Under the pieces are notes generated by a model that saw only the letters and a list, made by a program, of their open reading frames with translations, was not told the origin of the DNA and did no database searches. Below are positions 1,034 to 61,864 of a stretch of 64,000 nt of DNA, piece after piece. The stretch spans positions 1 to 64,000 of the IMG/VR virus record IMGVR_UViG_3300032288_001980; one strand, written 5' to 3'. The translations under genes were made by a program, and so were the position numbers. Numbering within the stretch: the stretch's first letter is position 1; each line of letters opens with the position of its first letter. Source of the stretch: a virus.

Positions 1034-1873
1034 ATGAAAAAATTTATCTTTTTATTACTGGCCTGTTGCGCCAATGCTTACTCTGGCCCTACTGCTAGTT
1101 ATGCTTTATACGACTATGATGCACATCAGTTTGTTATCAAAGAAGATGTAGACCGAGTTCGTAGTATGGCCAGTATTACTAAACTGTTTACTGCCATGAC
1201 TGTGATACGTAGCGGAGTTAATTTACAAGAAAAAGTAAAAGTAACAGGTCGTAGTAGAGGATTCGTGCCACGTAATTCGATGATTTCTAGATATGACTTG
1301 CTAAGAGCCATGTTAATCAGCAGTGATAACTTAGCCAGTGAAAGTCTTGCTAATGCACATCCTGGCGGATTTAATCAGTTTATAATCGATGCTAATTTTT
1401 ATGCTGATCAAGTATTAAAATTAAGAGAAACTAAAATTGTCGATTCCAGCGGTCTAATGGCCGGCAACGTCACTAACGTGAACGATTTAATAGATTTGCT
1501 TGAAGCAACTCGCAGTAATGAAATTATCAAAAAAATTGCCGCAGAGCGTAATGCTATCATTACTATGAATGTTACTCGTGGTAAGAAACAAAAAGAAATT
1601 ACAATTAATTTTAGAAACACTAATCCACAATTATGGACGTTTGATAACATTTTAGTTAGTAAAACAGGATATACCAATGCCGCGGGTCGATGCGTAGTTA
1701 TGTTGGTAGAAAAGAACAATTTGCCTTTTGCAGTAATTGTGCTAGGTACTAGAAATATATACGAAAGAAGTAAACTAGCCAAACAGCTAATTGAAATACC
1801 AATCGAACCTAGAATCGTTCCAGTAATAGAACCTGAAATAAAATTTGATTCGGTAGATTACAATTTGTACTAA
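1034..1873 (+). CDS. D-alanyl-D-alanine carboxypeptidase/endopeptidase-like (peptidase S11)
   Basis: A penicillin-binding-protein-like serine D,D-peptidase that would cut the terminal D-Ala or cross-links of peptidoglycan in the periplasm. All three active-site motifs are present: S47-I-T-K50, S97-D-N99 and K210-T-G212. The N-terminus is a secretion signal (KKFIFLLLACCANA); LLAC could also act as a lipobox. At 279 residues it holds only the catalytic domain, without the C-terminal beta domain and amphipathic anchor of PBP5 (about 400 residues). Possible roles are lysis, wall remodelling, or release of D-Ala for the DadA-like enzyme at 9793. Confidence 0.85.
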   Translation: MKKFIFLLLACCANAYSGPTASYALYDYDAHQFVIKEDVDRVRSMASITKLFTAMTVIRSGVNLQEKVKVTGRSRGFVPRNSMISRYDLLRAMLISSDNLASESLANAHPGGFNQFIIDANFYADQVLKLRETKIVDSSGLMAGNVTNVNDLIDLLEATRSNEIIKKIAAERNAIITMNVTRGKKQKEITINFRNTNPQLWTFDNILVSKTGYTNAAGRCVVMLVEKNNLPFAVIVLGTRNIYERSKLAKQLIEIPIEPRIVPVIEPEIKFDSVDYNLY

Positions 1874-2124
1874 TGGATTCACACGAAAAACTTTGGGCTA
1901 TTGATATTAGGCATGCCAAAAATAATGTAGTTTGGGCATTTCCTTATCATGTGCCCGAGCCCAGTTATCCGCCTTTTCCTGGTTTTGATGTTCTTGAAGG
2001 ATATTTACACGAACATTATGTTGGCTATTCTACAAATAGACTGTATAATAACGGTAGTCCAGTACTGGAAATTAAATTTGCAACAGAACAAGAAGCTATG
2101 ATGTTTGTACTGAGATGGTCATGA
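1873..2124 (+). CDS. small LRW-motif protein, array member 1
   Basis: An 83-residue protein, first of a tandem run of tiny paralogue-like genes. Its start overlaps the upstream stop (TAATG). It ends in EQEAMMFVLRWS, the family signature ([DE]-x-A-x-x-F-x-[LI]-R-W). The codons for R-W-S-stop (AGA TGG TCA TGA) contain the start of the next gene. Function unknown. Confidence 0.8.
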   Translation: MDSHEKLWAIDIRHAKNNVVWAFPYHVPEPSYPPFPGFDVLEGYLHEHYVGYSTNRLYNNGSPVLEIKFATEQEAMMFVLRWS

Positions 2125-2327
2125 GAGAGCTTAAAAAAGAATTATGGCCTTATCGGATCGTAATAAACAGCGACATTAAAAATGACATCACACCAGTGGA
2201 GCTCTGGTTAGGAGAACAACTGGGTACTTTTAAAGGTCGTTGGAATGTTGTTTATAGAGTTAACGAAACACATTTTTATTTTCGATTAGGCGAAGATGCT
2301 ATGTTATTTTCATTGAGGTGGTCATGA
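2121..2327 (+). CDS. small LRW-motif protein, array member 2
   Basis: A 68-residue protein. The start at 2121 overlaps the previous TGA; an in-frame ATG two codons earlier is possible. The domain pattern is visible: W-L-G-E-Q-L, then a G-R-W-N strand, then an aromatic strand and EDAMLFSLRWS at the end. Function unknown. Confidence 0.8.
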   Translation: MRELKKELWPYRIVINSDIKNDITPVELWLGEQLGTFKGRWNVVYRVNETHFYFRLGEDAMLFSLRWS

Positions 2328-2536
2328 CAGTAAAAATTTTTGCAGAGCGTGATAATTTTAAATTAATAGGCGACAGCAGAGATATAGCTGTTGATTTCAA
2401 TTATCGTAGTGCTGTATGGGATTGGTGTAACGACAATGATATTGATTTGGAATATCAAGGTTCACTAGGTAGTGTAGATCTTTGGCGTATTAGAAACGAA
2501 GAGCAAAGATTAATGTTTGTACTGAGGTGGTCATGA
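2324..2536 (+). CDS. small LRW-motif protein, array member 3
   Basis: A 70-residue protein starting within the upstream TGA. The preceding GAGGTGG, which encodes the upstream L-R-W end, sits where a Shine-Dalgarno would act. It contains W-D-W-C-N-D-N-D and ends EEQRLMFVLRWS. Function unknown. Confidence 0.8.
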   Translation: MTVKIFAERDNFKLIGDSRDIAVDFNYRSAVWDWCNDNDIDLEYQGSLGSVDLWRIRNEEQRLMFVLRWS

Positions 2537-2784
2537 CTGTGAGAACAAGATCCCGCCAACTTGAATATAAGGTTTTCAGCGATGTTGAACCACATATAGC
2601 CAAGGTATGGTGCAATAGTACTATCGGTGATCAATGGTGTGCCTTAGATAATCGACAAGGACTATGGACTTGTTTTTGGGCAGGCCCAAGTCATCTTAGA
2701 GAACGCAACGGAGAAACTGGAAAATATGTATATAGGTTTGCCGAAGAACAAGATGCGCTTATGTTTAAGATAAGGTGGAGTTAA
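2533..2784 (+). CDS. small LRW-motif protein, array member 4
   Basis: An 83-residue protein coupled by ATGA to member 3 and preceded by GAGGTGG. It is Trp-rich and ends EEQDALMFKIRWS. Function unknown. Confidence 0.8.
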   Translation: MTVRTRSRQLEYKVFSDVEPHIAKVWCNSTIGDQWCALDNRQGLWTCFWAGPSHLRERNGETGKYVYRFAEEQDALMFKIRWS

Positions 2785-2993
2785 TGTCATTACATACAGT
2801 TGTTTATCATAGACTAGAACCAGGACAGTTAGCAGGACATATTCGCAGTCTATTAGATCATAATGTAGATCGTTGGTTGGCAGAACATTGTCAGGGACGC
2901 TATTATCATAATCCTGGCTGGACAGATACTAAATTTATTCAATTTGAAGATGCATTGGAAGCATTTACCTTTTCATTAACCTGGGGAAAATAA
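2784..2993 (+). CDS. small LRW-motif protein, array member 5
   Basis: A 69-residue protein; its ATG overlaps the upstream TAA and AAGGTGGAG lies just upstream. It shows the full domain pattern: W-L-A-E-H-C-Q-G-R-Y-Y, then FEDALEAFTFSLTWGK. The Arg of LRW is Thr here. Function unknown. Confidence 0.8.
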   Translation: MSLHTVVYHRLEPGQLAGHIRSLLDHNVDRWLAEHCQGRYYHNPGWTDTKFIQFEDALEAFTFSLTWGK

Positions 2994-3151
2994 TGACATT
3001 AATTTATGACGATTTCGATGATGTTTATGTTTGGGTTGAAGATAACGATCATAACATTACGCTAAGTCCGGAATATGACGACGAAGAAAGTGCCCGTCAA
3101 TGGTATAGTCGAGTATATGCAATCATGCAGACTGCTAAATTGTCAGTATGA
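2993..3151 (+). CDS. 52-residue acidic protein inside the small-gene array
   Basis: A short frame beginning MTLIYDDFDDVYVWVEDND and ending QTAKLSV. It fills the gap between members 5 and 7 exactly: its ATG overlaps the upstream TAA and its TGA overlaps the next ATG. That packing is the main reason to believe it. It has an EYDDEESARQWYSRVYAI segment but no LRW ending. Function unknown. Confidence 0.65.
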   Translation: MTLIYDDFDDVYVWVEDNDHNITLSPEYDDEESARQWYSRVYAIMQTAKLSV

Positions 3152-3345
3152 GTAGCACAGTAGTCACACTACCTTATAGACCACTATGGGAACCACTTGA
3201 TTGGGCCAAAAAAAATTGTCCCAGCTATATTACTAATGACGCACACAGCATCGGTAATAACTCTTATGACAATAGTAAAATAGATTATTTTTTCAATGAT
3301 GAACATGATGCTTTTAAATTTGCACTAAGATGGGGTGGGCAATGA
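3148..3345 (+). CDS. small LRW-motif protein, array member 7
   Basis: A 65-residue protein coupled by ATGA on both sides. It contains W-A-K-K-N-C and ends NDEHDAFKFALRWGGQ, a clear family signature. Function unknown. Confidence 0.8.
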   Translation: MSSTVVTLPYRPLWEPLDWAKKNCPSYITNDAHSIGNNSYDNSKIDYFFNDEHDAFKFALRWGGQ

Positions 3346-3626
3346 AGACAACAACAAATTTTTATTCACCGATGCTAGAAGACAAGATACTAAAAGACGC
3401 GGCCAAAGAACTACAAAAAGAAATTGATTGGCAAGTTTTAAAAGATCTATTAATTGAAACAGGCTGGGTCAAAGTTGAATTAACTAGCAAGTGGCTACCT
3501 TGCACTGGAATAGAACTTGATGACTGGCGTAAAAAGAATCTTACTGGTCGATGGTATGCCAATGATAATATATGGATTTTTGAAAAAGCCGAAGATGCTG
3601 TTCTTTTTACACTACGATGGCAGTAA
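3342..3626 (+). CDS. small LRW-motif protein, array member 8
   Basis: A 94-residue protein. The start at 3342 overlaps the upstream TGA and is preferred to an in-frame ATG four codons earlier. It has an extra N-terminal helix (residues 10-35), then W-R-K-K-N-L-T-G-R-W and EKAEDAVLFTLRWQ at the end. Function unknown. Confidence 0.8.
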   Translation: MKTTTNFYSPMLEDKILKDAAKELQKEIDWQVLKDLLIETGWVKVELTSKWLPCTGIELDDWRKKNLTGRWYANDNIWIFEKAEDAVLFTLRWQ

Positions 3627-3904
3627 AAAGACGCAGATATTTTCCTAAAACTCCTGGCACAGGCGAGTATAGAATTTTGGACATTACACAGATTATCACA
3701 GACGGTGCAGACTGTTACCCATGGCAAGAAGTCTATGCTTGGTGGCCGGTTAAAACTATTAGCGGAAAAAGAGTATGGCGTGAAAAAGTGTTCAAGCGTC
3801 GAGTGTGGATCGTTTGGGGTGCAAGTTTTCATATGGAACCAGAAGTGCAATACGCTACAATGTTTGATTTAATTACTATAGACTGTAATGCTATCTACAA
3901 TTAA
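3617..3904 (+). CDS. basic, Trp-rich phage protein
   Basis: A 95-residue protein starting MAVKRRRYFPKTPG, overlapping the previous gene by 10 bases. It contains YPWQEVYAWWPVKTISG and RRVWIVWGASF. It lacks the LRW ending of its neighbours and belongs to another family. Similar Trp-rich 'YAWWPV' proteins seem familiar from phages, but no function is known. Confidence 0.75.
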   Translation: MAVKRRRYFPKTPGTGEYRILDITQIITDGADCYPWQEVYAWWPVKTISGKRVWREKVFKRRVWIVWGASFHMEPEVQYATMFDLITIDCNAIYN

Positions 3905-4316
3905 AGAAAGAATAACAGAATGGCGAGATTATCGCTTTTTAAAAAAGCACGGCTGCTCGTCTTGGTACCAGTATCATAGAAAAACAGATCCAGATGTTTG
4001 CCAGTGGGCCAGTAGAGTAGATGACTTTTATCATGGCTATCCAATGAAGCATTGTTTTGAAAACTTTGATAACGAAATCTACGAATGGGACTTGGGTCGA
4101 TGTGGCCTTACTAGATGCGAAAATTGGTGTAAAGAAAATCTGTCAGGCAAATGGAGATTTGATATGTTAAGAGTCTTTATGCAAACTCCTATTGGCATAC
4201 ACGGCGTTGAAGAATCTGAATACTGGATAAATGAAATAGGCGGCAGTGACAAAATATTTTTTGTTTGTCACGATGCCGAAGATATGTTTAAATTTAAATT
4301 AAGGTGGGGTTCATGA
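3888..4316 (+). CDS. LRW-motif protein, largest array member
   Basis: A 142-residue member with an N-terminal extension. Residues 1-35 resemble a basic helix with a W-Y-Q-Y-H stretch; the C-terminal part has the family layout, W-C-K-E-N-L-S-G-K-W then CHDAEDMFKFKLRWGS. It ends in ATGA overlap with the dehydrogenase gene. Function unknown. Confidence 0.8.
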   Translation: MLSTIKERITEWRDYRFLKKHGCSSWYQYHRKTDPDVCQWASRVDDFYHGYPMKHCFENFDNEIYEWDLGRCGLTRCENWCKENLSGKWRFDMLRVFMQTPIGIHGVEESEYWINEIGGSDKIFFVCHDAEDMFKFKLRWGS

Positions 4317-6348: not shown

Positions 6349-7116
6349 ATGAAATTTCCAATTACACGCATCACACAGCTGAGAGAGATATTGAACAATC
6401 ATCCATTGTTGTCTGAAAAAATTATTAATAATCGTCAAGACCTTCAACATTTTATGGAATGCCATGTGTTTGCAGTTTTTGACTTTATGAGTTTGATCAA
6501 AACTCTACAACACCAAATTTGTCCCAGCTCTACAGTTTGGTTGCCTAGTCCTTTGCAACGCAAAGCCAGTCGATTCGTTAATGAAATTATTCTAGCCGAA
6601 GAAAGCGATACCAGTTTAGTAGATGGCGAGTACATTAGTCATTACGATTTATACATCCAGGCCATGAGAGAAGTCGGTGCTGACCCTGATGTTATTATTG
6701 GATTTGAAGAACTAGTTAGAGAGTTTGGCATCGAATGGAGTTTAGATAAAGGTGACATTCCTGAAAGTTGTTATAACTTTGTTCGCAGTACTTTTGATTT
6801 TATTAATACAGATAAACCACATGTAGTAGCGGCGGCCTTTTGTTTTGGTAGAGAAACGGTTATACCTGACATGTTCACTGGAATATTAGAGCACTTGGGT
6901 ATTACAGAGTCACAGGCGCCTGGATTCTTTTACTATCTGCGTAGACACATCGAAGTTGACGGTGGCGAACACGGCCCTGCTAGTATCAAACTAATAGAAA
7001 CCTTGTGTGATAATGATCCTATTAAACTACAAGAAGCTGAACAGGCAGCACTAGATGCTATACAAGCACGTATTCGTTTTTGGAACGAAGTACGCAATGA
7101 GATTATATACAGATGA
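6349..7116 (+). CDS. DUF3050 family protein (heme-oxygenase-like fold)
   Basis: A 255-residue all-helical protein with family marks FMECHVFAVFDFMSL near residue 35 and RRHIEVDGGEHGPAS in the C-terminal third. DUF3050 proteins belong to the heme-oxygenase-like helical superfamily, which includes di-metal oxidases; the conserved His/Glu residues fit metal binding. Its phage role is unknown. It is the first gene of a nucleotide-metabolism run and overlaps dCMP deaminase by ATGA. Confidence 0.75.
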   Translation: MKFPITRITQLREILNNHPLLSEKIINNRQDLQHFMECHVFAVFDFMSLIKTLQHQICPSSTVWLPSPLQRKASRFVNEIILAEESDTSLVDGEYISHYDLYIQAMREVGADPDVIIGFEELVREFGIEWSLDKGDIPESCYNFVRSTFDFINTDKPHVVAAAFCFGRETVIPDMFTGILEHLGITESQAPGFFYYLRRHIEVDGGEHGPASIKLIETLCDNDPIKLQEAEQAALDAIQARIRFWNEVRNEIIYR

Positions 7117-7604
7117 AACCTAAATTTAAAAAACTATACATGGACTGGGCTACTCGTGTGGCCCAGTTAAGTTACGCAAAAAGATTACAAGTGGGTGCAG
7201 TTATTGTCAAAGACGATACTGTTATCAGTTATGGCTATAATGGTATGCCTGCGGGCTGGGATAACAACTGTGAACACGATGTAATAGTTGCCGAAATTGA
7301 TGGTGACCCAGGTAGGGTAATTAGAGAAAATAAAACTAGGCCGGAGGTTCTACATGCAGAATCAAATGCAATCGCAAAGCTCGCAAAATCTACTAATAGT
7401 GGCCTTGGTGCTGACTTGTTCATCACTCATAGCCCTTGTATGGAATGCGCTAAACTTATCTATCAGTCTGGCATTCGCCGCGTTTTTTATGCTGAGGATT
7501 ACAGAGATAATTCGGGTGTCAACTTCCTCAGACATTCAGGAGTCGCAGTGGAACAAATAGATGACAGTAGTCAAAGTATTTTGGACAACTCTAAATCCGT
7601 TTAA
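7113..7604 (+). CDS. dCMP deaminase
   Basis: A zinc-dependent deoxycytidylate deaminase that makes dUMP for thymidylate synthesis. The catalytic H81-A-E83 and the zinc pair P108-C109-x-x-C112 are present, as is the N-terminal GYNGMPAGWDNNC segment typical of phage and bacterial dCMP deaminases. The length of 163 residues is normal. It is co-transcribed with the DUF3050 gene. Confidence 0.92.
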   Translation: MKPKFKKLYMDWATRVAQLSYAKRLQVGAVIVKDDTVISYGYNGMPAGWDNNCEHDVIVAEIDGDPGRVIRENKTRPEVLHAESNAIAKLAKSTNSGLGADLFITHSPCMECAKLIYQSGIRRVFYAEDYRDNSGVNFLRHSGVAVEQIDDSSQSILDNSKSV

Positions 7605-7848
7605 CGGCGTAGCAGATTGGCAAGATTGGCTGGATACTCACGCCGGCAGTCAGGGACGAGATTGGGGCTGGTTTCAAAGTGATGTAGTTGCCGGCGACTA
7701 TGACGAACGCACAGTAATAGGTATATGGTTCAATAATGAAGCTATAGCAATGTTGTTTAAATTATCACACGACTGCGAGTTTTATTTAGGTGAAAAAACT
7801 GTTGACAAAGCAGACAAAGCACCGTATAATGATAGCTATGGAAAATGA
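7561..7848 (+). CDS. small LRW-family-like protein
   Basis: A 95-residue protein overlapping the deaminase 3' end by 44 bases. The pattern W-L-D-T-H ... GIWFNNEAIAMLFKL resembles the array at 1873-4316, with a degenerate ending and a polar tail added. Its 3' end contains the promoter of the next gene. Function unknown. Confidence 0.7.
   Translation: MTVVKVFWTTLNPFNGVADWQDWLDTHAGSQGRDWGWFQSDVVAGDYDERTVIGIWFNNEAIAMLFKLSHDCEFYLGEKTVDKADKAPYNDSYGK
7802..7830 (+). promoter_or_regulatory. sigma70-type promoter driving a leaderless start
   Basis: TTGACA (7802-7807), 17 bp, TATAAT (7825-7830). The ATG at 7838 follows after 7 bases, so transcription should begin at or next to the start codon. It lies inside the 3' coding end of the upstream gene. 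Confidence 0.85.
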
Positions 7849-8017
7849 AACTAAAAGATGGGTCGTCACTGTAGAAGAGGATCCCGAAACTGGTGATTTA
7901 ATTTTACCCTTTCCCGATGGTCTATTAGATTCTATGGGATGGAAAGAGGGCGATGTTATCAATTGGAAAGAAGAAAACGGCGCATGGATTCTGACTCGAA
8001 AATCAAACGACATGTAA
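7838..8017 (+). CDS. SpoVT-AbrB/MazE-like DNA-binding protein
   Basis: A 59-residue swapped-hairpin AbrB-type protein. DLILPFPDGLLDSMGWKEGD followed by W-K-E-E-N-G-A-W-I-L-T is the characteristic strand-turn-helix-strand. Such proteins act as transition-state regulators or as antitoxins; no toxin gene adjoins it, so transcription control is more likely. The start is fixed by the promoter just upstream. A longer reading to 7790 would run through the promoter. Confidence 0.75.
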   Translation: MENETKRWVVTVEEDPETGDLILPFPDGLLDSMGWKEGDVINWKEENGAWILTRKSNDM

Positions 8018-8574
8018 TGATCGACTTGGAAACATTGGGAGTAACACCCGATGCTGTTATCCTAACTCTGGGTGCAATTAAGTTTGACCCCTGGGATGAT
8101 TCAAGTACATTAAACAGTCAAGAAAATATTCAAATGGATTGTTTCTATCATAGAATCGATCCTGAGAGTTTTGGACCTGACGCTAGAATAGACAACGGCA
8201 CATTGGCTTGGTGGGCCAATCAAAATGACGACGTAAGGGCAGAAGCTTTTGCTGAAGATAATCGACATCCTATTAGGACTACATTAACAGATTTTTACAA
8301 ATGGTTAGGTAAATTTGACTGTGTGTGGAGCAACGGCGCCACATTTGATATTGTAATGTTAGAATGGGCTTATAGAGCTCAGGACAAAGGAATCCCATGG
8401 AAGTATTGGCAGGCTAGAGATACTAGAACAATTTTCGGATTGGTCAAAGATCACAAAGAATTTATGCCTGAATCTGCTTCTAGTATGAAACATCATGCAC
8501 TTTGGGATTGTTGGGTCCAGTTAGTAACTGTACAAAATATTATACGCAGTCTGAATATTCCTCGCCCGGAGTAA
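7984..8574 (+). CDS. DEDDh 3'-5' exonuclease (RNase T/DnaQ-like)
   Basis: An RNase H-fold exonuclease. The N-terminal HVMID14LE16TLG gives the first two acidic ligands, NGATFDIVML the third, and KHHALWDC the catalytic His and last Asp. The start at 7984 keeps the first beta strand complete; 8017 (TAATG overlap) would cut it. It may proofread, trim RNA or degrade host DNA; it is a stand-alone domain of 196 residues. Confidence 0.8.
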   Translation: MDSDSKIKRHVMIDLETLGVTPDAVILTLGAIKFDPWDDSSTLNSQENIQMDCFYHRIDPESFGPDARIDNGTLAWWANQNDDVRAEAFAEDNRHPIRTTLTDFYKWLGKFDCVWSNGATFDIVMLEWAYRAQDKGIPWKYWQARDTRTIFGLVKDHKEFMPESASSMKHHALWDCWVQLVTVQNIIRSLNIPRPE

Positions 8575-8653: not shown

Positions 8654-9157
8654 ATGGCAAACCAACCTATAACATACAAGTATACCAGCACTAAAGAATA
8701 TGTAGACGCATTTCCCTGTGCTTATCGTCAGTGGCGAGCTGACAGTCACTGTAACTTAATTCACGGTTACAGTTTTTCAATGAAGTTCTACTTTGGTACT
8801 AATGATCTAGACGTTCGTAACTGGGCGGCTGACTATGGTGGCTTAAAAGAACTTAAAAAAATACTCGAAGATCAATTTGACCACACACTGATTGTGGCTC
8901 AAGATGATCCCGAACTAGAAACTTATAAACTGCTCCAAGAAAAGAAAATGGCCAAAATCGTTATTTTACCACGATTAGGCTGTGAGGGTTTGGCAGATCA
9001 GCTATATAAGTTTGTTAACGGAGTATACATACCTGATTACTGGGGTCCTAGTGAAGCCGAACGTCTATGGTGCTATCGCGTAGAAGTACGCGAGACACAG
9101 GCAAATATGGCTTTCCGTGAGGGGCATCGGGAGTGGGGTGAAGATTTGTTTAATTAA
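8654..9157 (+). CDS. queD: QueD-like 6-carboxytetrahydropterin/6-pyruvoyltetrahydropterin synthase
   Basis: A T-fold enzyme of the pterin/7-deazaguanine branch. The segment FPCAYRQWRADSHC33NLIH37GY carries the catalytic-type Cys and part of the zinc site, DH77TLI the next catalytic pair, and VEVRET the substrate-anchoring Glu. It is odd in that the usual A-H-R histidine is Tyr24 and HGH reads HGY, so metal binding is altered or uses His32. RBS AAGGAG. It is paired with the transporter gene downstream, which supports a preQ0/preQ1 role. Confidence 0.78.
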   Translation: MANQPITYKYTSTKEYVDAFPCAYRQWRADSHCNLIHGYSFSMKFYFGTNDLDVRNWAADYGGLKELKKILEDQFDHTLIVAQDDPELETYKLLQEKKMAKIVILPRLGCEGLADQLYKFVNGVYIPDYWGPSEAERLWCYRVEVRETQANMAFREGHREWGEDLFN

Positions 9158-9169
9158 AAGGAGAACATT

Positions 9170-9793
9170 ATGTTAGACAAAATTTTGGCCGGCGTTGACC
9201 GGGCACTTGCTTACAAATTAATGTTAGCGCACATCGTTATTATTGCAATTAGCAATTATATCGTTCAATTCAAGTTTGATTTCTTTGGCAATCCTATTGC
9301 ATGGGCGGCGTTTACGTTTCCATTGGTAGTTGTATTAACTGACTTAACAGTTAGACTGTTAGGTAAAGAAACAGGTCGTGCAGTAATTACCTTAGCTTTT
9401 ATTCCTGCTATTCTAGTAAGTATGGCAGTAGTTAAGTTAGGCGGTGCACCTGACTCTGTGGCTTTCCGCATCGGACTAGGATCTGGTGTTGCTTATTTTA
9501 TTAGCAATTTGTTAGATGTGTACGTTTTCCAGTACTTTAGAGAAAAATACCAAACATGGTGGATCGCCCCTACATTGAGTGCAGTAGCCAGTACATTCAT
9601 TGACACTTATGTATTCTTCTTTACAGCGTTCTACAAAGGTGCTAACGAATTCATGGCCGCTAACTGGCACATTGTTGCTACTAACAACAGTATCAGCAAA
9701 ATCCTTGTAAGTCTGTTAGTAATTTTACCCGCTTATGGCGTGTTATTAAATTACCTACAACAACGATTAAGCAAACAAGAACCCTCTAACTAA
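9170..9793 (+). CDS. yhhQ: queuosine-precursor transporter (VUT/YhhQ family)
   Basis: An inner-membrane protein of 207 residues with about six hydrophobic segments. TDLTVRLLGKETGR after the second segment is characteristic of the YhhQ/VUT family, which imports preQ0/preQ1. With the QueD-like gene 12 bases upstream, it suggests the phage draws on 7-deazaguanine precursors, for tRNA queuosine or for deazaguanine DNA modification. RBS AAGGAG. Confidence 0.85.
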   Translation: MLDKILAGVDRALAYKLMLAHIVIIAISNYIVQFKFDFFGNPIAWAAFTFPLVVVLTDLTVRLLGKETGRAVITLAFIPAILVSMAVVKLGGAPDSVAFRIGLGSGVAYFISNLLDVYVFQYFREKYQTWWIAPTLSAVASTFIDTYVFFFTAFYKGANEFMAANWHIVATNNSISKILVSLLVILPAYGVLLNYLQQRLSKQEPSN

Positions 9794-10977
9794 TGACTAA
9801 GCGAGTATTAGTGATCGGAGCAGGCATTACGGGTGTAATGTCTGCTTATTTTGCGGCAAAAAAAGGGTACGCAGTAACAGTTGTCGACCAAGAACGATAT
9901 GCTGGTATGCGTACTAGTTTTGCCAATGGCGGACAAATTAGTGTCAGTAACAGCGAAGTATGGACTACTCACAGCAATGTCCTAAAAGGCATTAAGTGGA
10001 TGTTCAAAAAAGATGCTCCATTACTGTTTAGACTATGGCGATTAGATTGGCCGATGTGGCGCTGGATTGCAAAATTTCTTTATTACACTTATACTGGTGC
10101 TTATCGAGCAAACACAGAACAAACAATTAAATTAGGTTTAGAATCTCGTAAATTGTATGATGTAATATGTGCAGAAGAAAAAATTAAGTTTGATAGAGAC
10201 AACTGCGGCATAGTACATTTTTATAAATCAGAAAATTATTGGCAATCTGCTGTATCTGCAACCGAGTTATACGCAGACAACGGTTTAGATCGAGTTGAGA
10301 TTCCCGTTGAACAAATGACTAAGTTAGATCCTAGCTTAAGAGACATTCAAGATTGTGTGGGTGCAACCTTTACGGCCAGTGATTGGACCGGTGACATACA
10401 TAAATTTTGCTATGAGTTAATGGATATACTGGAAAAGAAATATCAGGTTGTATTTCATAACACATGTAAAGTCAATTCATTAACTGCATATTCAACAGCA
10501 TTTGATGCTGTAATTGTTTCAGCAGGAGTAGGCAGTGAACAGTTGGCCAACAGCGTGGGTGATAGATTAGACGTTTACCCTGTAAAAGGATATAGCATTA
10601 CAATTAATAATGTAAAACCTCCGGCTGTAAGTTTATTAGATGATGAAGCTAAAATTGTTACTAGCAGTTTAGGTAATAGATTTAGAGTTGCCGGCACTGC
10701 CGAATTGGCCGGCGAAAACTATGATATTAGACGAGACAGAATCGAGCCTTTGTTAAATTGGGTTCATGAAAACTTTCCTAACATGAACACACACGACTAC
10801 AGTCAATGGGCTTGTCTAAGACCAATGACACCAAACATGATGCCCGTTGTTAAAAAGAGCACCAATAATCAAAAAGTATTTTATAATACTGGTCATGGTC
10901 ACTTGGGTTGGACTTTGGCACCTGTTACAGCCAAACAAGTAGTAGAACTAATAGACGCTGATAATGAAAATAGATAA
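9793..10977 (+). CDS. dadA: D-amino acid dehydrogenase (DadA-like FAD oxidoreductase)
   Basis: A 394-residue FAD enzyme of the DAO/DadA family, oxidising D-amino acids such as D-Ala to 2-oxo acids. It has the N-terminal dinucleotide motif G9-A-G-I-T-G14, then the DadA-typical SFANGGQISVSNSEVW, and the C-terminal FAD-binding GHGHLGWT. It overlaps the transporter stop (TAATG). It could use D-Ala freed by the D,D-carboxypeptidase at 1034. I do not recall it as a standard phage gene. Confidence 0.88.
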   Translation: MTKRVLVIGAGITGVMSAYFAAKKGYAVTVVDQERYAGMRTSFANGGQISVSNSEVWTTHSNVLKGIKWMFKKDAPLLFRLWRLDWPMWRWIAKFLYYTYTGAYRANTEQTIKLGLESRKLYDVICAEEKIKFDRDNCGIVHFYKSENYWQSAVSATELYADNGLDRVEIPVEQMTKLDPSLRDIQDCVGATFTASDWTGDIHKFCYELMDILEKKYQVVFHNTCKVNSLTAYSTAFDAVIVSAGVGSEQLANSVGDRLDVYPVKGYSITINNVKPPAVSLLDDEAKIVTSSLGNRFRVAGTAELAGENYDIRRDRIEPLLNWVHENFPNMNTHDYSQWACLRPMTPNMMPVVKKSTNNQKVFYNTGHGHLGWTLAPVTAKQVVELIDADNENR

Positions 10978-57736: not shown

Positions 57737-57755
57737 TCATTTAATTTCATTTTCG

Positions 57756-57763
57756 GATAAATA
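57756..57763 (+). promoter_or_regulatory. T4-type late promoter
   Basis: GATAAATA, 46 bases before the ATG at 57810. Confidence 0.6.
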
Positions 57764-57809
57764 ATACTGAAAATCCCATTTATTGGGTAAGAATTCTGCG
57801 AGCCAATTT

Positions 57810-58904
57810 ATGAGTAAAAAATCAATCCAAGAACAGTTAGTCGAAAGCGTTTTAGACGACAGCGACGATGCTGGCTTCATGGCAAAAAGCAATTTATATA
57901 ATGCTATCAAAAATGCAATTCAATTGCATAGAATCATTAAAGATACAGATAACTTAGAACCATGGGTTTTAGAAAAAATTGCTATTGCCGCAGACTATAT
58001 CGATACTGTTAAGGATTATGTAGAATACAAAAGCATTCACGATAACGAATTCCAGTTGGACGGTACTTATGCTCAGGGGCACGGGCACCATGAATATGAA
58101 GAAAGTGCGATAAGCGAAGCCTACGATAAGAGTTTCTTTGTTGTTGCTGATATAGGCCAGGGCAAACAGACTTTTAGAGCGCAAGGTCAAAACGAAGAAG
58201 ATGCTCGCAAAAAGTTTTTAAGTCAACACCCTGGTGCTAAAGTTCTTCATGTAGTATTGAATACCTTTGAAAATGTTAACGAGGCCGGCGAACAGCAAGA
58301 TCCCAATGCGGCTGCTGACCCAACACAAAACCAAGCCGCACCTGCACAAGAGCCTGCTCCAGCACCGCAAGCAGGCGCACTAGCAACAGAACCTGCCGAT
58401 CCGCAAACTCAAGCAGACATCGGTAAGATCCTAGATGGCATCAAAGCTATTCAAAAATATGCTAAGAGCAGAGATGACTTAGATCCCGAATTTGACAAAG
58501 ACAAGTTAGTTAAACTAGTAAGCAAAAAGATTCAAGGCACACAGCCTGAAGATGCAGAAAAAATTGCTAACTTTATTTTAGATACAGTTTCCGAAAGTGC
58601 TGTAATGGAAAAGGCCAAAAGCAAAGCACAACAGCGTTTCATGGGCATGGTACATGCCGCACAAAAAGGCGAAAAGCCTGCTAGTAAAGAAGTTGCTAAA
58701 GTAGCCAAAGACATGCCTAAAAAAGCAGCCAAAGACTTTGCCAAAACCAAACATAAAGGCCTTCCTGAAAAAGTTAAAGAAACAGCAAACTTAATGGATG
58801 AGTGGAATCAATATAAATTAGCTACTACTCGTTCCACAAGTAATGAATCTGTAGAAGCAGAAGCAATGGCACGTATGGCCAGAATGTTTGCAGGTAAAAA
58901 ATAA
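57810..58904 (+). CDS. virion-associated protein with DUF3008-like domain
   Basis: A 364-residue protein starting MSKKSIQEQLVESVLDD, a looser tag with site L-V-E. The N-domain FMAKSNLYNAIKNAIQLH is helical. A Pro/Ala/Gln linker (about 170-200) follows, and the C-terminal region KAKSKAQQRFMGMVHAAQKG plus KDMPKKAAKDFAKTKHKGLP fits DUF3008. The start at 57810 is chosen over an upstream TTG. The next gene overlaps by TAATG. Confidence 0.75.
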   Translation: MSKKSIQEQLVESVLDDSDDAGFMAKSNLYNAIKNAIQLHRIIKDTDNLEPWVLEKIAIAADYIDTVKDYVEYKSIHDNEFQLDGTYAQGHGHHEYEESAISEAYDKSFFVVADIGQGKQTFRAQGQNEEDARKKFLSQHPGAKVLHVVLNTFENVNEAGEQQDPNAAADPTQNQAAPAQEPAPAPQAGALATEPADPQTQADIGKILDGIKAIQKYAKSRDDLDPEFDKDKLVKLVSKKIQGTQPEDAEKIANFILDTVSESAVMEKAKSKAQQRFMGMVHAAQKGEKPASKEVAKVAKDMPKKAAKDFAKTKHKGLPEKVKETANLMDEWNQYKLATTRSTSNESVEAEAMARMARMFAGKK

Positions 58905-60151
58905 TGCCAACACCTACTCCGATGACTCCTGCTAAACCTATTGCTCCTGGTGCAACTAAACCACAAGGAACAACAGCGCCAGGAGCGCCTAATCAGCAAA
59001 ATGCTAACACACCTGGTCAAAATTCAGACGAGGTTGTTCGTAATCCGGGTGAAAAGATTTACAGTTTAAAAACACAAAAAGATCCAAACGGATCAATGAC
59101 TGTTTTTGCTAAAAACGAAATGGAAGCAAAAGCAAAATATCAGCAAATGGGCGCACCAATGGGCACAGTTGCACAAGCTATCGAAGTTAAAGAGGATAAA
59201 GCTATGACATATCAAGAACGTGTAGCACAATTTCATGAATCATCATTTCCTACATTAGAAGATGCAATCGTAGGAACACTACATGATCACTTATTAGAAA
59301 ATGGTGTTGATTTTTATGTTGACGGTGCTATTAAAACACGCAGTCAACAGACTGCATTAGACATTGTAGAAACTCTACAACAGTTCAGCACTGATTTTAT
59401 TCCTTTCGTTGTTGAAAGTGATGGCGAGTATATTATCAAAGTAGGTACTTTAGAAGAGGATACGTTATTAGAGGACGAGGTTAACTTACCTGACCCTACA
59501 CGTATTTCTGTAAAACAAAATGCCGCTGGTGCTTTTAAAGTATATGTAGGTGAAGATGTTGCAGACACATTTGATAGCATAAAAAGTGCTTCAAAGTATA
59601 TCCAAACACTTGTGTCTGAGACACGAGCACAATTTGATGAACTGGATGAAATGTTCCAGTACACTATCGGAGTAAGTATGGTTAATGAAGGCAAAAAGAA
59701 AATGGCTAAAGAAGGCAATGCCTTCGACTGGAAAAACAAAGAAGACGACGATAAGCCAAAAGTCGGCGATAAAAAGCGTACTAGCAAGGGCGAAGTAGAA
59801 TATACTAAAACTGGATTAATCCACAGAGCACGTCAGAACTATGGCGGTGCTGATTCCGAAGAGGATACAGCAGACGGAAAAGATCCAGCAACAGGCGAAA
59901 AGCGTGGCCGTGGTCGTCCACGTACTCGTCCACTACCTGATCCTGACGCTCCTAAGCGTGGTCGTGGTCGCCCAAAGAAAGTTAAAGAAGCACAAGCCAG
60001 CTTGTCTAATCTTAAAAAGCAAGTTAAAGAAACACTACGTAAGATCGAAAGCCTAAGTGAAAGCCAGCGCAGTAATCCTAAGGTAGCCGAAGTAGTACAA
60101 AGACTACACGAATCAGTCACTAAGGCAGTTGCCGCGGCACGTATGCTATGA
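58904..60151 (+). CDS. AT-hook DNA-binding phage protein
   Basis: A 415-residue protein with a disordered Pro/Thr start (MPTPTPMTPAKPIAPG), an alpha/beta middle, and two AT-hooks near residues 328 and 346 (GEKRGRGRPRTRP and PKRGRGRPKKVKE), followed by a coiled coil. AT-hooks bind the minor groove of AT-rich DNA, such as this genome. Late neighbours suggest a head or nucleoid protein. It overlaps the next tagged gene by ATGA. Confidence 0.8.
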   Translation: MPTPTPMTPAKPIAPGATKPQGTTAPGAPNQQNANTPGQNSDEVVRNPGEKIYSLKTQKDPNGSMTVFAKNEMEAKAKYQQMGAPMGTVAQAIEVKEDKAMTYQERVAQFHESSFPTLEDAIVGTLHDHLLENGVDFYVDGAIKTRSQQTALDIVETLQQFSTDFIPFVVESDGEYIIKVGTLEEDTLLEDEVNLPDPTRISVKQNAAGAFKVYVGEDVADTFDSIKSASKYIQTLVSETRAQFDELDEMFQYTIGVSMVNEGKKKMAKEGNAFDWKNKEDDDKPKVGDKKRTSKGEVEYTKTGLIHRARQNYGGADSEEDTADGKDPATGEKRGRGRPRTRPLPDPDAPKRGRGRPKKVKEAQASLSNLKKQVKETLRKIESLSESQRSNPKVAEVVQRLHESVTKAVAAARML

Positions 60152-60318
60152 GATTACACGAGCTAGTAGAATCAAAAAGCAAACTTGGTACCGATTACAC
60201 TACAGACAAAGTGTTTTCAGACCAAGTCAAAGCCACCGACAAAGCCACGAAAATGCCTGTTGCCCAATGGGGTACTAAGCATCCGTTTAACGGCAAGCTA
60301 GTAGGCGGCGGAGTATAA
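60148..60318 (+). CDS. 56-residue tagged peptide
   Basis: A short protein, MRLHELVESKSKLGTDYTTD at its start and ending LVGGGV. The tag (site L-V-E) makes up a sixth of it, so the mature product would be about 48 residues, similar in size to packaged internal peptides. It fits exactly between the AT-hook gene (ATGA) and dps. Confidence 0.75.
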   Translation: MRLHELVESKSKLGTDYTTDKVFSDQVKATDKATKMPVAQWGTKHPFNGKLVGGGV

Positions 60319-60319
60319 C

Positions 60320-60760
60320 ATGGAACAACTAGTACAAGAAATGAAAGTGCTACATGCTAGCACATTTTCTTTATATTTAAAGGCACACAACTATCACTGG
60401 AACGTAGAAGGTATTCACTTTCCGCAGTTTCATGCATTTTTTGAAGACTTATACAACGAATTATGGACAGCAGTAGATCCTATTGCAGAAAATATTCGTA
60501 AGCTAGGCTCGTTTACGCCTGGCAGTTTATCTAGATTTAATGAATTAACTATTGTTGAAGATGAATTAAAAATTCCTACTGCTATGGATATGGTAGCCAA
60601 GTTACACGACGACAACGAAAGAGTAATTGGACTATTATACAGAGTGTACGAACTAGCAGAAGGTGCCAAGGAGCTTGGATTAAGCAATTTTATCCAAGAC
60701 AGAATTGACGTACACAAAAAACATGCGTGGATGTTAAGAAGTATTCTACGTAGAAACTAA
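60320..60760 (+). CDS. dps: Dps-like ferritin
   Basis: A 146-residue Dps/ferritin-like protein. The ferroxidase-centre pattern is present: A-H23-N-Y-H26-W-N-V-E-G, then F-H38-A-F-F-E-D-L-Y-N-E. It stores iron and shields DNA from peroxide. It begins one base after the tagged peptide and is closed by its own terminator. Confidence 0.88.
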   Translation: MEQLVQEMKVLHASTFSLYLKAHNYHWNVEGIHFPQFHAFFEDLYNELWTAVDPIAENIRKLGSFTPGSLSRFNELTIVEDELKIPTAMDMVAKLHDDNERVIGLLYRVYELAEGAKELGLSNFIQDRIDVHKKHAWMLRSILRRN

Positions 60761-60771
60761 TCAGTTTCCCC

Positions 60772-60793
60772 GGGCTACTAAGTAGCCCTTTTC
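60772..60793 (+). terminator. rho-independent terminator
   Basis: GGGCTAC-TAA-GTAGCCC followed by TTTT, 12 bases after the dps stop. Confidence 0.9.
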
Positions 60794-60804
60794 ATTTTAT
60801 CGAT

Positions 60805-61098
60805 ATGCAGAATTTAAAAAAACAACGGTATCGGCCGGCTCGGAAGCCGCACGATCATATACCTACTAACGAAGCTCAGTTACTCAGTAAACAATTTACA
60901 GAACAAGAACTAGACATTATAAAACAACTAGCTAGTAATCAATTAGACTATAATAGTTCTCAAGTAACAGATGAGTTGCAAGACAAGCTATATGATTTTT
61001 ATCATTCCAAAATGCCTAGTATAACTAAAAGCGTTCACGGTAGTCCAGGTCTTTGGATTACGGCCAGATTAAATACAATATATAAGAATTCGCTCTAA
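60805..61098 (+). CDS. small basic phage protein
   Basis: A 97-residue protein starting MQNLKKQRYRPARKPHDH, basic at the N-terminus, then helical (FTEQELDIIKQLASNQLD). It directly follows the terminator and no clear ribosome binding site is seen. Function unknown. Confidence 0.65.
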   Translation: MQNLKKQRYRPARKPHDHIPTNEAQLLSKQFTEQELDIIKQLASNQLDYNSSQVTDELQDKLYDFYHSKMPSITKSVHGSPGLWITARLNTIYKNSL

Positions 61099-61237
61099 GA
61101 GCAACCAGCCCCACCTTAGGGCCGTTAGTCGTCAACGGTATTAGGCGTCCGGACAATTGGACTGTACCCCGTTAGTGTACGCTGGATAAAGTAACCAGCA
61201 TCTTTGACTTTAGACACTGACTCTTGTACAATAAAAT
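61099..61237 (+). other. 139-bp non-coding stretch with RNA-like pairings
   Basis: No gene is seen. The left 110 bases are richer in G+C than the surroundings and can pair: AACGGTA with TACC/CCGTT around GTCC...GGAC, and GCTGG with CCAGC. The right end holds the promoter at 61204. It could be a small RNA, a leader, or simply inactive DNA. Confidence 0.4.
61204..61232 (+). promoter_or_regulatory. sigma70-type promoter driving a leaderless start
   Basis: TTGACT (61204-61209), 17 bp, TACAAT (61227-61232), five bases, ATG at 61238. Confidence 0.75.
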
Positions 61238-61864
61238 ATGAATGTTACCAACATAATCGACTCTCCTGCTATTATTGATGTTGAGTTTCCAGAATTCGAA
61301 AGATTTGATGTTGATCGTATGTTTGAGGCACCAGCGGGCAGAGTTGACTATGGGTCGTTAGATGTAGAGCCACAACGATTTACAATATTTCCACGTGATG
61401 ATACCAACGACGAGTTTAGTAAATTTAGTAAAGAGCTCTATGAGCCGCTAAGGTTAATAACTAAACAATTAGTATCTCTAGATCCGTTACGGTACCCTAT
61501 GTTCGATAGTCCTAACTTCGACATTTGGTTTACTAAACGTTATGCTAGTAGAACAAAAATAGCATTTAGTAGAGTAATCGATCAGCCTGGGTTCAATCAA
61601 GGCTGGCATTTAGATAATAGATTTGTATTGTTATCGGGTGTAATCAATGTACAAGATAACAATACGCAAACACATTTTTCTCATGAGAGAATTATGCGTT
61701 GGGTACCCGAACAAGTAGAACATGAATTTCCTGAAAAAATAATTCATCAGGGACAAAATAAAAAGTGGACCGGCACGTTTTGGCTTAATACTGAAATTAC
61801 TTGGCACTGTGTGCCTTTAGTTGAAACTACAAGAAAGATTATTTTATGCAATTTGTTTCTTTAA
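61238..61864 (+). CDS. 2OG-Fe(II) oxygenase-like protein
   Basis: A 208-residue protein with G-W-H-L-D as the first iron ligands and T-W-H-C-V-P-L ... T-T-R-K-I-I-L as distal His and 2OG Arg. The layout resembles the other oxygenases in the window but the sequence is not close. It overlaps the desaturase by 19 bases, so a lipid or a protein partner is possible. Confidence 0.68.
   Translation: MNVTNIIDSPAIIDVEFPEFERFDVDRMFEAPAGRVDYGSLDVEPQRFTIFPRDDTNDEFSKFSKELYEPLRLITKQLVSLDPLRYPMFDSPNFDIWFTKRYASRTKIAFSRVIDQPGFNQGWHLDNRFVLLSGVINVQDNNTQTHFSHERIMRWVPEQVEHEFPEKIIHQGQNKKWTGTFWLNTEITWHCVPLVETTRKIILCNLFL

What the first reader, a model, noticed from the sequence alone, without database searches (positions are those of the whole stretch)
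1873..4316. Tandem array of tiny proteins with a C-terminal DAxxFxLRW signature
Seven of the nine small overlapping genes here end in [DE]-x-A-x-x-F-x-[LI]-R-W (or a close variant), often after W-[LC]-x-E/K-x-x-x-G-[KR]-W. Possible relatives lie at 7561, 10964 and 36158. Their sequences have diverged far while keeping that core, the pattern of repeated duplication under diversifying pressure, as for inhibitors of varied host targets or defence systems. I do not recognise the domain.
Basis: partly seen in the sequence, partly recalled or inferred. Interest (0 to 1): 0.78.

Follow-up and report, generated by a model that had tools for sequence, protein, structure and literature searches.

The report
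Phage mini-protein array carrying capsid fragments
A large bacterial virus carries a packed row of tiny, fast-changing proteins that share one small domain, and some of them (one here, many in related viruses) have a piece of the virus's own shell protein or core enzymes spliced onto the front, which suggests mimicry in conflicts with hosts or rival viruses.

Summary
Ten overlapping ORFs (1873-4316) include eight ending in F-x-[LI]-[RT]-W. They are 8 of 471 ORFs in the window and no others occur in the 184-kb phage contig. The ending marks an unrecognised small beta-alpha-beta-beta-alpha domain. It recurs in tandem arrays in over 100 IMG/VR contigs (547 copies in 108 loci, up to 35 per record) and in cultured jumbo phages; Sinorhizobium phage Phosso has 43. 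No convincing Pfam, PHROG, PADLOC or PDB match exists for the domain.

(1) The LRW codons double as the ribosome-binding site of the next gene: AGG 65% there, 8% in background. (2) Many members carry an N-terminal piece of the phage's own hallmark proteins, mainly major capsid protein gp23 (Pfam Gp23 in 9 of 150 long members, every other family in 1). The window's 3330-3626 gene carries a gp23 helix. Codon identity is at chance, so the pieces are kept as protein. dN/dS is 0.31 (0.12 for other genes), never above 1.

Best guess: conflict proteins acting by mimicry of phage core proteins. Function untested.

The parts
1873..2124 (+). array gene 1, 83 aa, ends EQEAMMFVLRWS; 9-member subfamily in the sampled loci
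   Evidence: profile E 2.8e-10
2121..2327 (+). array gene 2, 68 aa (ORF opens at 2115), 'RELKKELWPYRI' subfamily, ends GEDAMLFSLRWS; ATGA overlap with gene 1
   Evidence: close relatives in 11 other loci; profile E 1.1e-8
2324..2536 (+). array gene 3, 70 aa (ORF opens at 2318), ends EEQRLMFVLRWS; ATGA overlap
   Evidence: profile E 1.6e-9
2533..2784 (+). array gene 4, 83 aa (ORF opens at 2527), ends EQDALMFKIRWS; ATGA overlap
   Evidence: profile E 1.6e-11
2784..2993 (+). array gene 5, 69 aa (ORF opens at 2775), ends ALEAFTFSLTWGK; TAATG overlap
   Evidence: profile E 9.8e-11
2993..3151 (+). 52-aa ORF inside the array without the motif
   Evidence: no family match
3148..3345 (+). array gene 6, 65 aa, 'PSYITND' subfamily, ends EHDAFKFALRWGGQ; ATGA overlap
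   Evidence: 21 members in 21 loci; profile E 1.2e-9
3342..3626 (+). array gene 7, 94 aa (ORF opens at 3330): N-terminal helix homologous to gp23 residues ~178-208 of the phage's own capsid protein, then the shared domain ending AEDAVLFTLRWQ
   Evidence: AlphaFold2 model with long helix then b-a-b-b-a, pLDDT 72.6
3617..3904 (+). 95-aa ORF inside the array without the motif
   Evidence: weak phrog_7749, E 0.0015, unknown function
3888..4316 (+). array gene 8, 142 aa, 'DFYHGYP..C' subfamily, ends AEDMFKFKLRWGS
   Evidence: 15 members in 15 loci; profile E 1.2e-7
2110..2124 (+). example of a ribosome-binding site embedded in the LRW(S) codons (CTGAGATGGTCATGA); TTGAGGTGGTCATGA and CTGAGGTGGTCATGA precede the starts at 2324 and 2533
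   Evidence: sequence; codon test
7561..7848 (+). possible outlying member (FNNEAIAMLFKLS, longer tail)
   Evidence: profile E 0.0099

Best explanation
SHOWN: the array is a run of overlapping, probably translationally coupled small genes whose products share one compact alpha/beta domain. The domain's last helix (DAxxFxLRW) ends the protein, and its codons are biased to serve as ribosome-binding site for the next gene. The domain is a chassis: in many members, including window gene 3342-3626, a short piece of a phage hallmark protein, most often gp23, sits in front of it, kept at amino-acid level. INFERRED: these are accessory conflict proteins. The domain folds and presents the variable front part, which in motif-bearing members mimics conserved segments of phage core proteins and so titrates or blocks a host factor that senses or attacks those proteins (decoy). 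Members without a recognisable phage piece would bind other partners in the same way.
For: Domain and array. Folds. gp23 pieces: six chimeras on separate contigs above Pfam's Gp23 cut-off; Gp23/major-head the only families recurring among 150 long members; the subfamily of the window gene, with overt gp23 members removed, still ranks gp23 first among 924 long ORFs, at the same residues. Other motifs exceed shuffles: NLCxE 5 v 0.03, Walker A 6 v 0.07, polymerase motif A 4 v 0.2, with matching motifs in the same or related phages' NrdA, polymerase and terminase. Front pieces swap among C-terminal subfamilies. Kept as protein, not DNA: identical codons 22 of 51, expected 20.3. Cultured phage Phosso has 43 members and a gp23-piece chimera, XYS97328.1. 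Purifying but fast evolution.
Against: No target, phenotype or expression data. Only one of eight window members carries a recognisable phage piece. The pieces are short (10-60 aa) and unlikely to fold like the source protein, whereas most known capsid or terminase sensors are thought to read folded proteins (own knowledge). No gene-wide positive selection. PADLOC gave nothing convincing. The gp23 pieces are no closer to any cultured phage's gp23 than 41-50% in the best rows.
Confidence: 0.36

Rival explanations
1. One reading: a repertoire of small inhibitors of varied host or defence proteins; the capsid and enzyme pieces are incidental raw material captured during gene birth.
For: Tandem, overlapping, fast-evolving, lineage-variable small genes in a large phage; most members have no recognisable phage piece.
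Against: Pieces preserve signature residues while flanks and codons are randomised, and two hallmark motifs can sit within 25 aa (NLCQEV next to MDSGMFYAPYIP in L136; NSVYG-TNLCKEI in L080). Incidental capture does not predict preserved signatures.
Confidence: 0.27
2. Weapons against co-infecting phages: the pieces interfere with capsid assembly, RNR or replication of related rivals (dominant-negative or superinfection interference).
For: Sources are shared core genes of T4-related phages; gp23 pieces hit 75 to 1538 phage records depending on the piece, so many rivals share the targets. A published review describes jumbo phages deploying intracellular factors against rivals (PMC7824862).
Against: Pieces are about equally far from own and from other gp23, so self-harm would be expected; pieces of 10-15 aa from NrdA or polymerase are implausible inhibitors.
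Confidence: 0.17
3. Capsid- or replisome-associated helper proteins: the gp23 helix docks the domain on the assembling head.
For: gp23 spine-helix piece conserved in one subfamily across more than 20 contigs.
Against: Three different gp23 regions are used (37-120, 143-208, 324-348), plus polymerase, NrdA and P-loop motifs on the same domain; the members are numerous and variable, unlike assembly factors.
Confidence: 0.09
4. By-product of translation signals: LRW exists because AGGTGG is needed as a Shine-Dalgarno site before the next ATG.
For: AGG at 65% of LRW arginines when a start follows, 31% (9/29) when none does, 8% background.
Against: Conservation extends about 18 residues upstream and over the whole domain; Lys or Thr replaces Arg in 99 of 547; in Phosso the usual ending is DAMLFKL followed by varied residues, often without LRW.
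Confidence: 0.03
5. DNA-level decoys or landing sites for homing endonucleases/inteins, which favour exactly these conserved motif-coding sites.
For: Walker A, NLCxE and polymerase motif A are classic intein sites (own knowledge); NrdA and polymerase matches are split into pieces in some of these phages.
Against: Codons at identical residues match no more than codon usage predicts (22 of 51 v 20.3; 47 of 109 overall).
Confidence: 0.04

Closest known systems
Small-gene host-takeover modules (e.g. phage SPO1's 26-gene cluster, PMC6873191 abstract)
   Same: cluster of many tiny genes of largely unknown fold used inside the host
   Different: I know of no claim that the SPO1 genes form one paralogous family; here one domain recurs 8-43 times per genome, with capsid and enzyme pieces on some members and an RBS inside the conserved C-terminus
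Lineage-specific expansions in jumbo phages (e.g. ~35 zinc-ribbon copies in phage G, PMC7824862)
   Same: one small domain multiplied dozens of times in a giant phage
   Different: different domain; here the expansion is shared by many phages, with conserved orthologous subfamilies and chimeric front ends
T4 gp23 major capsid protein (PF07068)
   Same: N-terminal pieces of many members, and of window 3342-3626, are homologous to it
   Different: the members are not capsid proteins; only roughly 25-60-residue pieces from three regions are present
Phage proteins that activate bacterial sensors (gp23 Gol peptide for Lit, capsid for CapRel: own knowledge; tail tube for DSR2: PMC11087589 abstract)
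   Same: parts of phage structural proteins are what the host detects
   Different: those are the real structural proteins; arrays of decoy fragments have not been reported in what I could search
T4 gp33 late-transcription coactivator (PF16805)
   Same: weak local match of window gene 2324 (E 0.25)
   Different: far below Pfam cut-off and seen for one member only; rejected

Membership tests
Gp23 major capsid protein (PF07068) | full HK97-type capsid protein of ~380-520 aa | tested here: not met
   members are small (mostly 52-163 aa) and match only pieces; the real gp23 of this phage is separate, contig 167406-168572
Gp23 major capsid protein (PF07068) | homology of the N-terminal piece to gp23 | tested here: met
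   six chimeras above gathering cut-off; window 3342-3626 by HMM, gp23 top among 924 ORFs, sequence E 1.5e-4, and hhalign E 2.5e-6
Phage late-transcription coactivator gp33 (PF16805) | match above curated cut-off | tested here: not met
   11.7 bits against cut-off 25
Any known domain (Pfam, PHROGs, PDB) for the shared C-terminal domain | significant recurrent profile or fold match | tested here: not met
   only uncharacterised viral models match
Known anti-phage defence proteins (PADLOC) | recurrent profile match | tested here: not met
   single weak hits only, best E 0.0026, one member each
Decoy/anti-defence protein (functional class) | binds a defence protein and prevents its action | not testable with these tools
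   needs binding and infection assays
Host-takeover gene module (functional class) | expressed early and acts on host machinery | not testable with these tools
   no expression data for these phages
Proteins under diversifying selection | dN/dS above 1 | tested here: not met
   median 0.31, none of 222 pairs above 1; site-specific tests not run

The most novel reading that the evidence does not exclude
The arrays are a modular mimicry system: phages graft conserved signature segments of their own capsid, ribonucleotide reductase, polymerase and packaging/helicase proteins onto a common mini-domain to saturate unknown bacterial (or satellite/rival) factors that recognise those very segments. 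That would imply immune recognition of short conserved motifs of phage core proteins.
Probability: 0.25. Interest if true: 0.93.

Novelty: new variant of a known kind. Interest (0 to 1): 0.72.

Why it matters
An abundant phage protein family, up to 43 copies per genome, has no recognisable entry in Pfam, PHROGs or PDB. Its capsid-fragment members point to specific, testable partners: whatever in the cell recognises conserved parts of gp23, NrdA or polymerase. Cultured hosts exist (Sinorhizobium meliloti phage Phosso; Pseudomonas phage PA5oct and Agrobacterium phage Atu_ph07 with few, weaker members), so the question can go to the bench. The RBS embedded in a conserved C-terminus also shows how such arrays could grow: each gene carries the start signal of the next.

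Tried and rejected
Late-transcription coactivator (gp33) and DUF6175 hits: below cut-off, one member each. WhiB-like and DnaB hits: single weak matches. Direct blast of window DNA or of single members against cultured phages: no relevant match; a profile search was needed to find Phosso. Bacterial genomes: no relative of one subfamily. Exonuclease motif I enrichment is weak (12 v 6.1 shuffled) and the single NSxYG is near chance taken alone (1 v 0.23). PDB fold searches with both models: nothing at E<=0.001. HMMs of other subfamilies against long ORFs revealed no further source gene. Literature searches found no description of the family; the library is incomplete. A weak resemblance of the domain's W-x-FE-x3-DA segment to gp23 149-172 (domain E ~1) was not pursued.
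Full report
WHAT IS THERE. The window is the first 64 kb of a 183,898-bp virus record. Between a D-alanyl-D-alanine carboxypeptidase (PF00768) and a UDP-sugar dehydrogenase (PF00984) lie ten small plus-strand ORFs. Eight end in F-x-[LI]-[RT]-W plus 1-3 residues. A regular expression for the ending finds these eight among 471 ORFs of the window and no other convincing one in the contig. Nearly every junction overlaps, typically by the four bases ATGA (sequence).

WIDER FAMILY. In these loci and the window 547 ORFs carry the ending, in 108 loci and up to 16 per locus. MCL clustering gave 68 groups; those with window members span 8 to 61 loci each. The seed biases which loci were fetched, but most members do not contain it (162 do). 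A C-terminal profile (A6) finds 9 matches in this contig, 35 in a 240-kb record, 26 in a 364-kb record, and in cultured phages 43 in Sinorhizobium phage Phosso, 6 weak in Agrobacterium phage Atu_ph07, 4 in Pseudomonas phage PA5oct, none in GAP32 or Vibrio phage 2.275. This phage's gp23 is nearest to Phosso, Vibrio 2.275, PA5oct and GAP32/CBB, so it belongs near that jumbo-phage group.

ONE DOMAIN. HMMs built separately from many subfamilies hit the same last ~50 residues of an unrelated 290-aa protein (L047:2866-3738). AlphaFold2 gives helix, then b-a-b-b-a, for window 3330-3623 (pLDDT 72.6, moderate) and b-b-b-a-a-b-b-a for a subfamily without the WCxEN motif (pLDDT 94.0). Both end in the same b-b-a unit with FxLRW in the last helix. 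No solved structure matches; viral models that match are all uncharacterised proteins.

RIBOSOME SITE IN THE MOTIF. In members not selected by the seed, the arginine codon of LRW is AGG in 167 of 257 when a start lies within 17 nt downstream and in 9 of 29 when none does; background AGG is 8%. AGGTGG with 2 nt before ATG places GAGGTG in register with the anti-Shine-Dalgarno (own knowledge of the 16S 3' end). This does not explain the protein motif: Lys or Thr also occur, conservation spans the domain, and Phosso members mostly end in DAMLFKL plus varied residues.

CAPSID PIECES. Some members match gp23 at their N terminus. Against this phage's own gp23 (L006:3406-4572), pieces from residues 37-120, 143-208, 177-250 and 324-348 are found in different members. 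Pfam Gp23's cut-off is exceeded by six members on separate contigs. Among 150 long members, Gp23 recurs in nine while every other Pfam family occurs once, and only major-head families recur in PHROGs. The subfamily of window gene 3342-3626 (35 members, 33 loci) carries the gp23 segment around residues 178-208. With overt gp23-like members left out, its HMM still ranks gp23 proteins first among 924 long ORFs, at the same residues (sequence E 6e-5 to 1.5e-4 for the best). In the 364-kb record the full gp23 is present (74% identical to ours) and the array piece is about 42% identical to it. The complete genome of cultured phage Phosso has its own gp23 plus XYS97328.1, whose 'WDAAVFYTPYVPL' parallels its gp23 'IDAAAYYCPYVPL' in front of the family domain, and a further gp23 piece at 182,277-182,417 in an ORF with a different tail. 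So the chimeras are not metagenome assembly errors.

OTHER PIECES. Shuffled controls give 0.03-0.2 expected for NLCxE (5 seen), Walker A (6) and polymerase motif A (4) among 735 array-like ORFs. Sources exist in these phages: NrdA 'IYQSNLCCEILLPTK' against array 'IYNSNLCKEILLTAQ' in the same record, polymerase 'DINSLYPS', terminase 'LLGRQLGKT'. The Walker A source could be terminase (phrog_2, E 0.005) or helicase (phrog_19, E 0.002). Exonuclease motif I is only twice chance. No NrdA was found in this contig. These shorter pieces are less certain than gp23. The same C-terminal subfamily occurs with no piece, with gp23, or with Walker A plus NLCxE, so fronts are exchanged.

LEVEL OF SELECTION. 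At residues identical between piece and source, codons agree in 22 of 51 cases against 20.3 expected (five pairs with a usable background; 47 of 109 over all eleven pairs). That argues for protein-level retention and against recent copying or DNA targets; the sample is small. Array genes have median dN/dS 0.31 (222 pairs, none above 1) against 0.12 for other genes (85 pairs), higher in 19 of 21 matched locus pairs. They are real, constrained, fast-evolving proteins; gene-wide diversifying selection is not shown.

INTERPRETATION. Shown: family, domain, coupling signal, chimeras, protein-level retention. Inferred: use in conflict, and mimicry as the mode for motif-bearing members. Decoys for host factors are my first choice, generic host inhibitors second, interference with rival phages third. 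Nothing here identifies a partner. Literature searches found no earlier description, within an incomplete library.

Noticed in passing
window 8654-9157 and 9170-9793: QueD-like 6-pyruvoyl tetrahydropterin synthase (PF01242) beside a Vut_1/YhhQ-type transporter (PF02592): possible queuosine or deazaguanine DNA-modification genes.
   Followed up: partly
window 9793-10977: FAD-dependent amino-acid oxidoreductase (DAO, PF01266, E 3e-57), an unusual phage cargo gene.
   Followed up: no
window 6349-7116: DUF3050/haem-oxygenase-like protein (PF11251, E 3e-79) in a phage.
   Followed up: no
window 7939-8574: Rv2179c-like 3'-5' exonuclease (PF16473); homologues also lie near arrays in L030, L068, L094, L099 and L124, a possible source of the DLET motif seen in some array proteins.
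   Followed up: partly
G021 (record of L098) 57737-61717: NrdA match split into three pieces with a 902-aa frame: probable intein or similar insertion after the NLCxE motif.
   Followed up: no
G012 (record of L081) 131885-134219: DNA polymerase B match split over two ORFs between motif A and motif B.
   Followed up: no
L191 1-14000 and L192 20032-21917 (Phosso): Phosso small-protein arrays are interspersed with tRNA genes and are annotated only as hypothetical proteins.
   Followed up: partly
gp23 149-172 versus the domain's W-x-FE-x3-DA segment: Weak resemblance of the shared domain itself to another gp23 segment (domain E about 1, same place in several gp23s).
   Followed up: no
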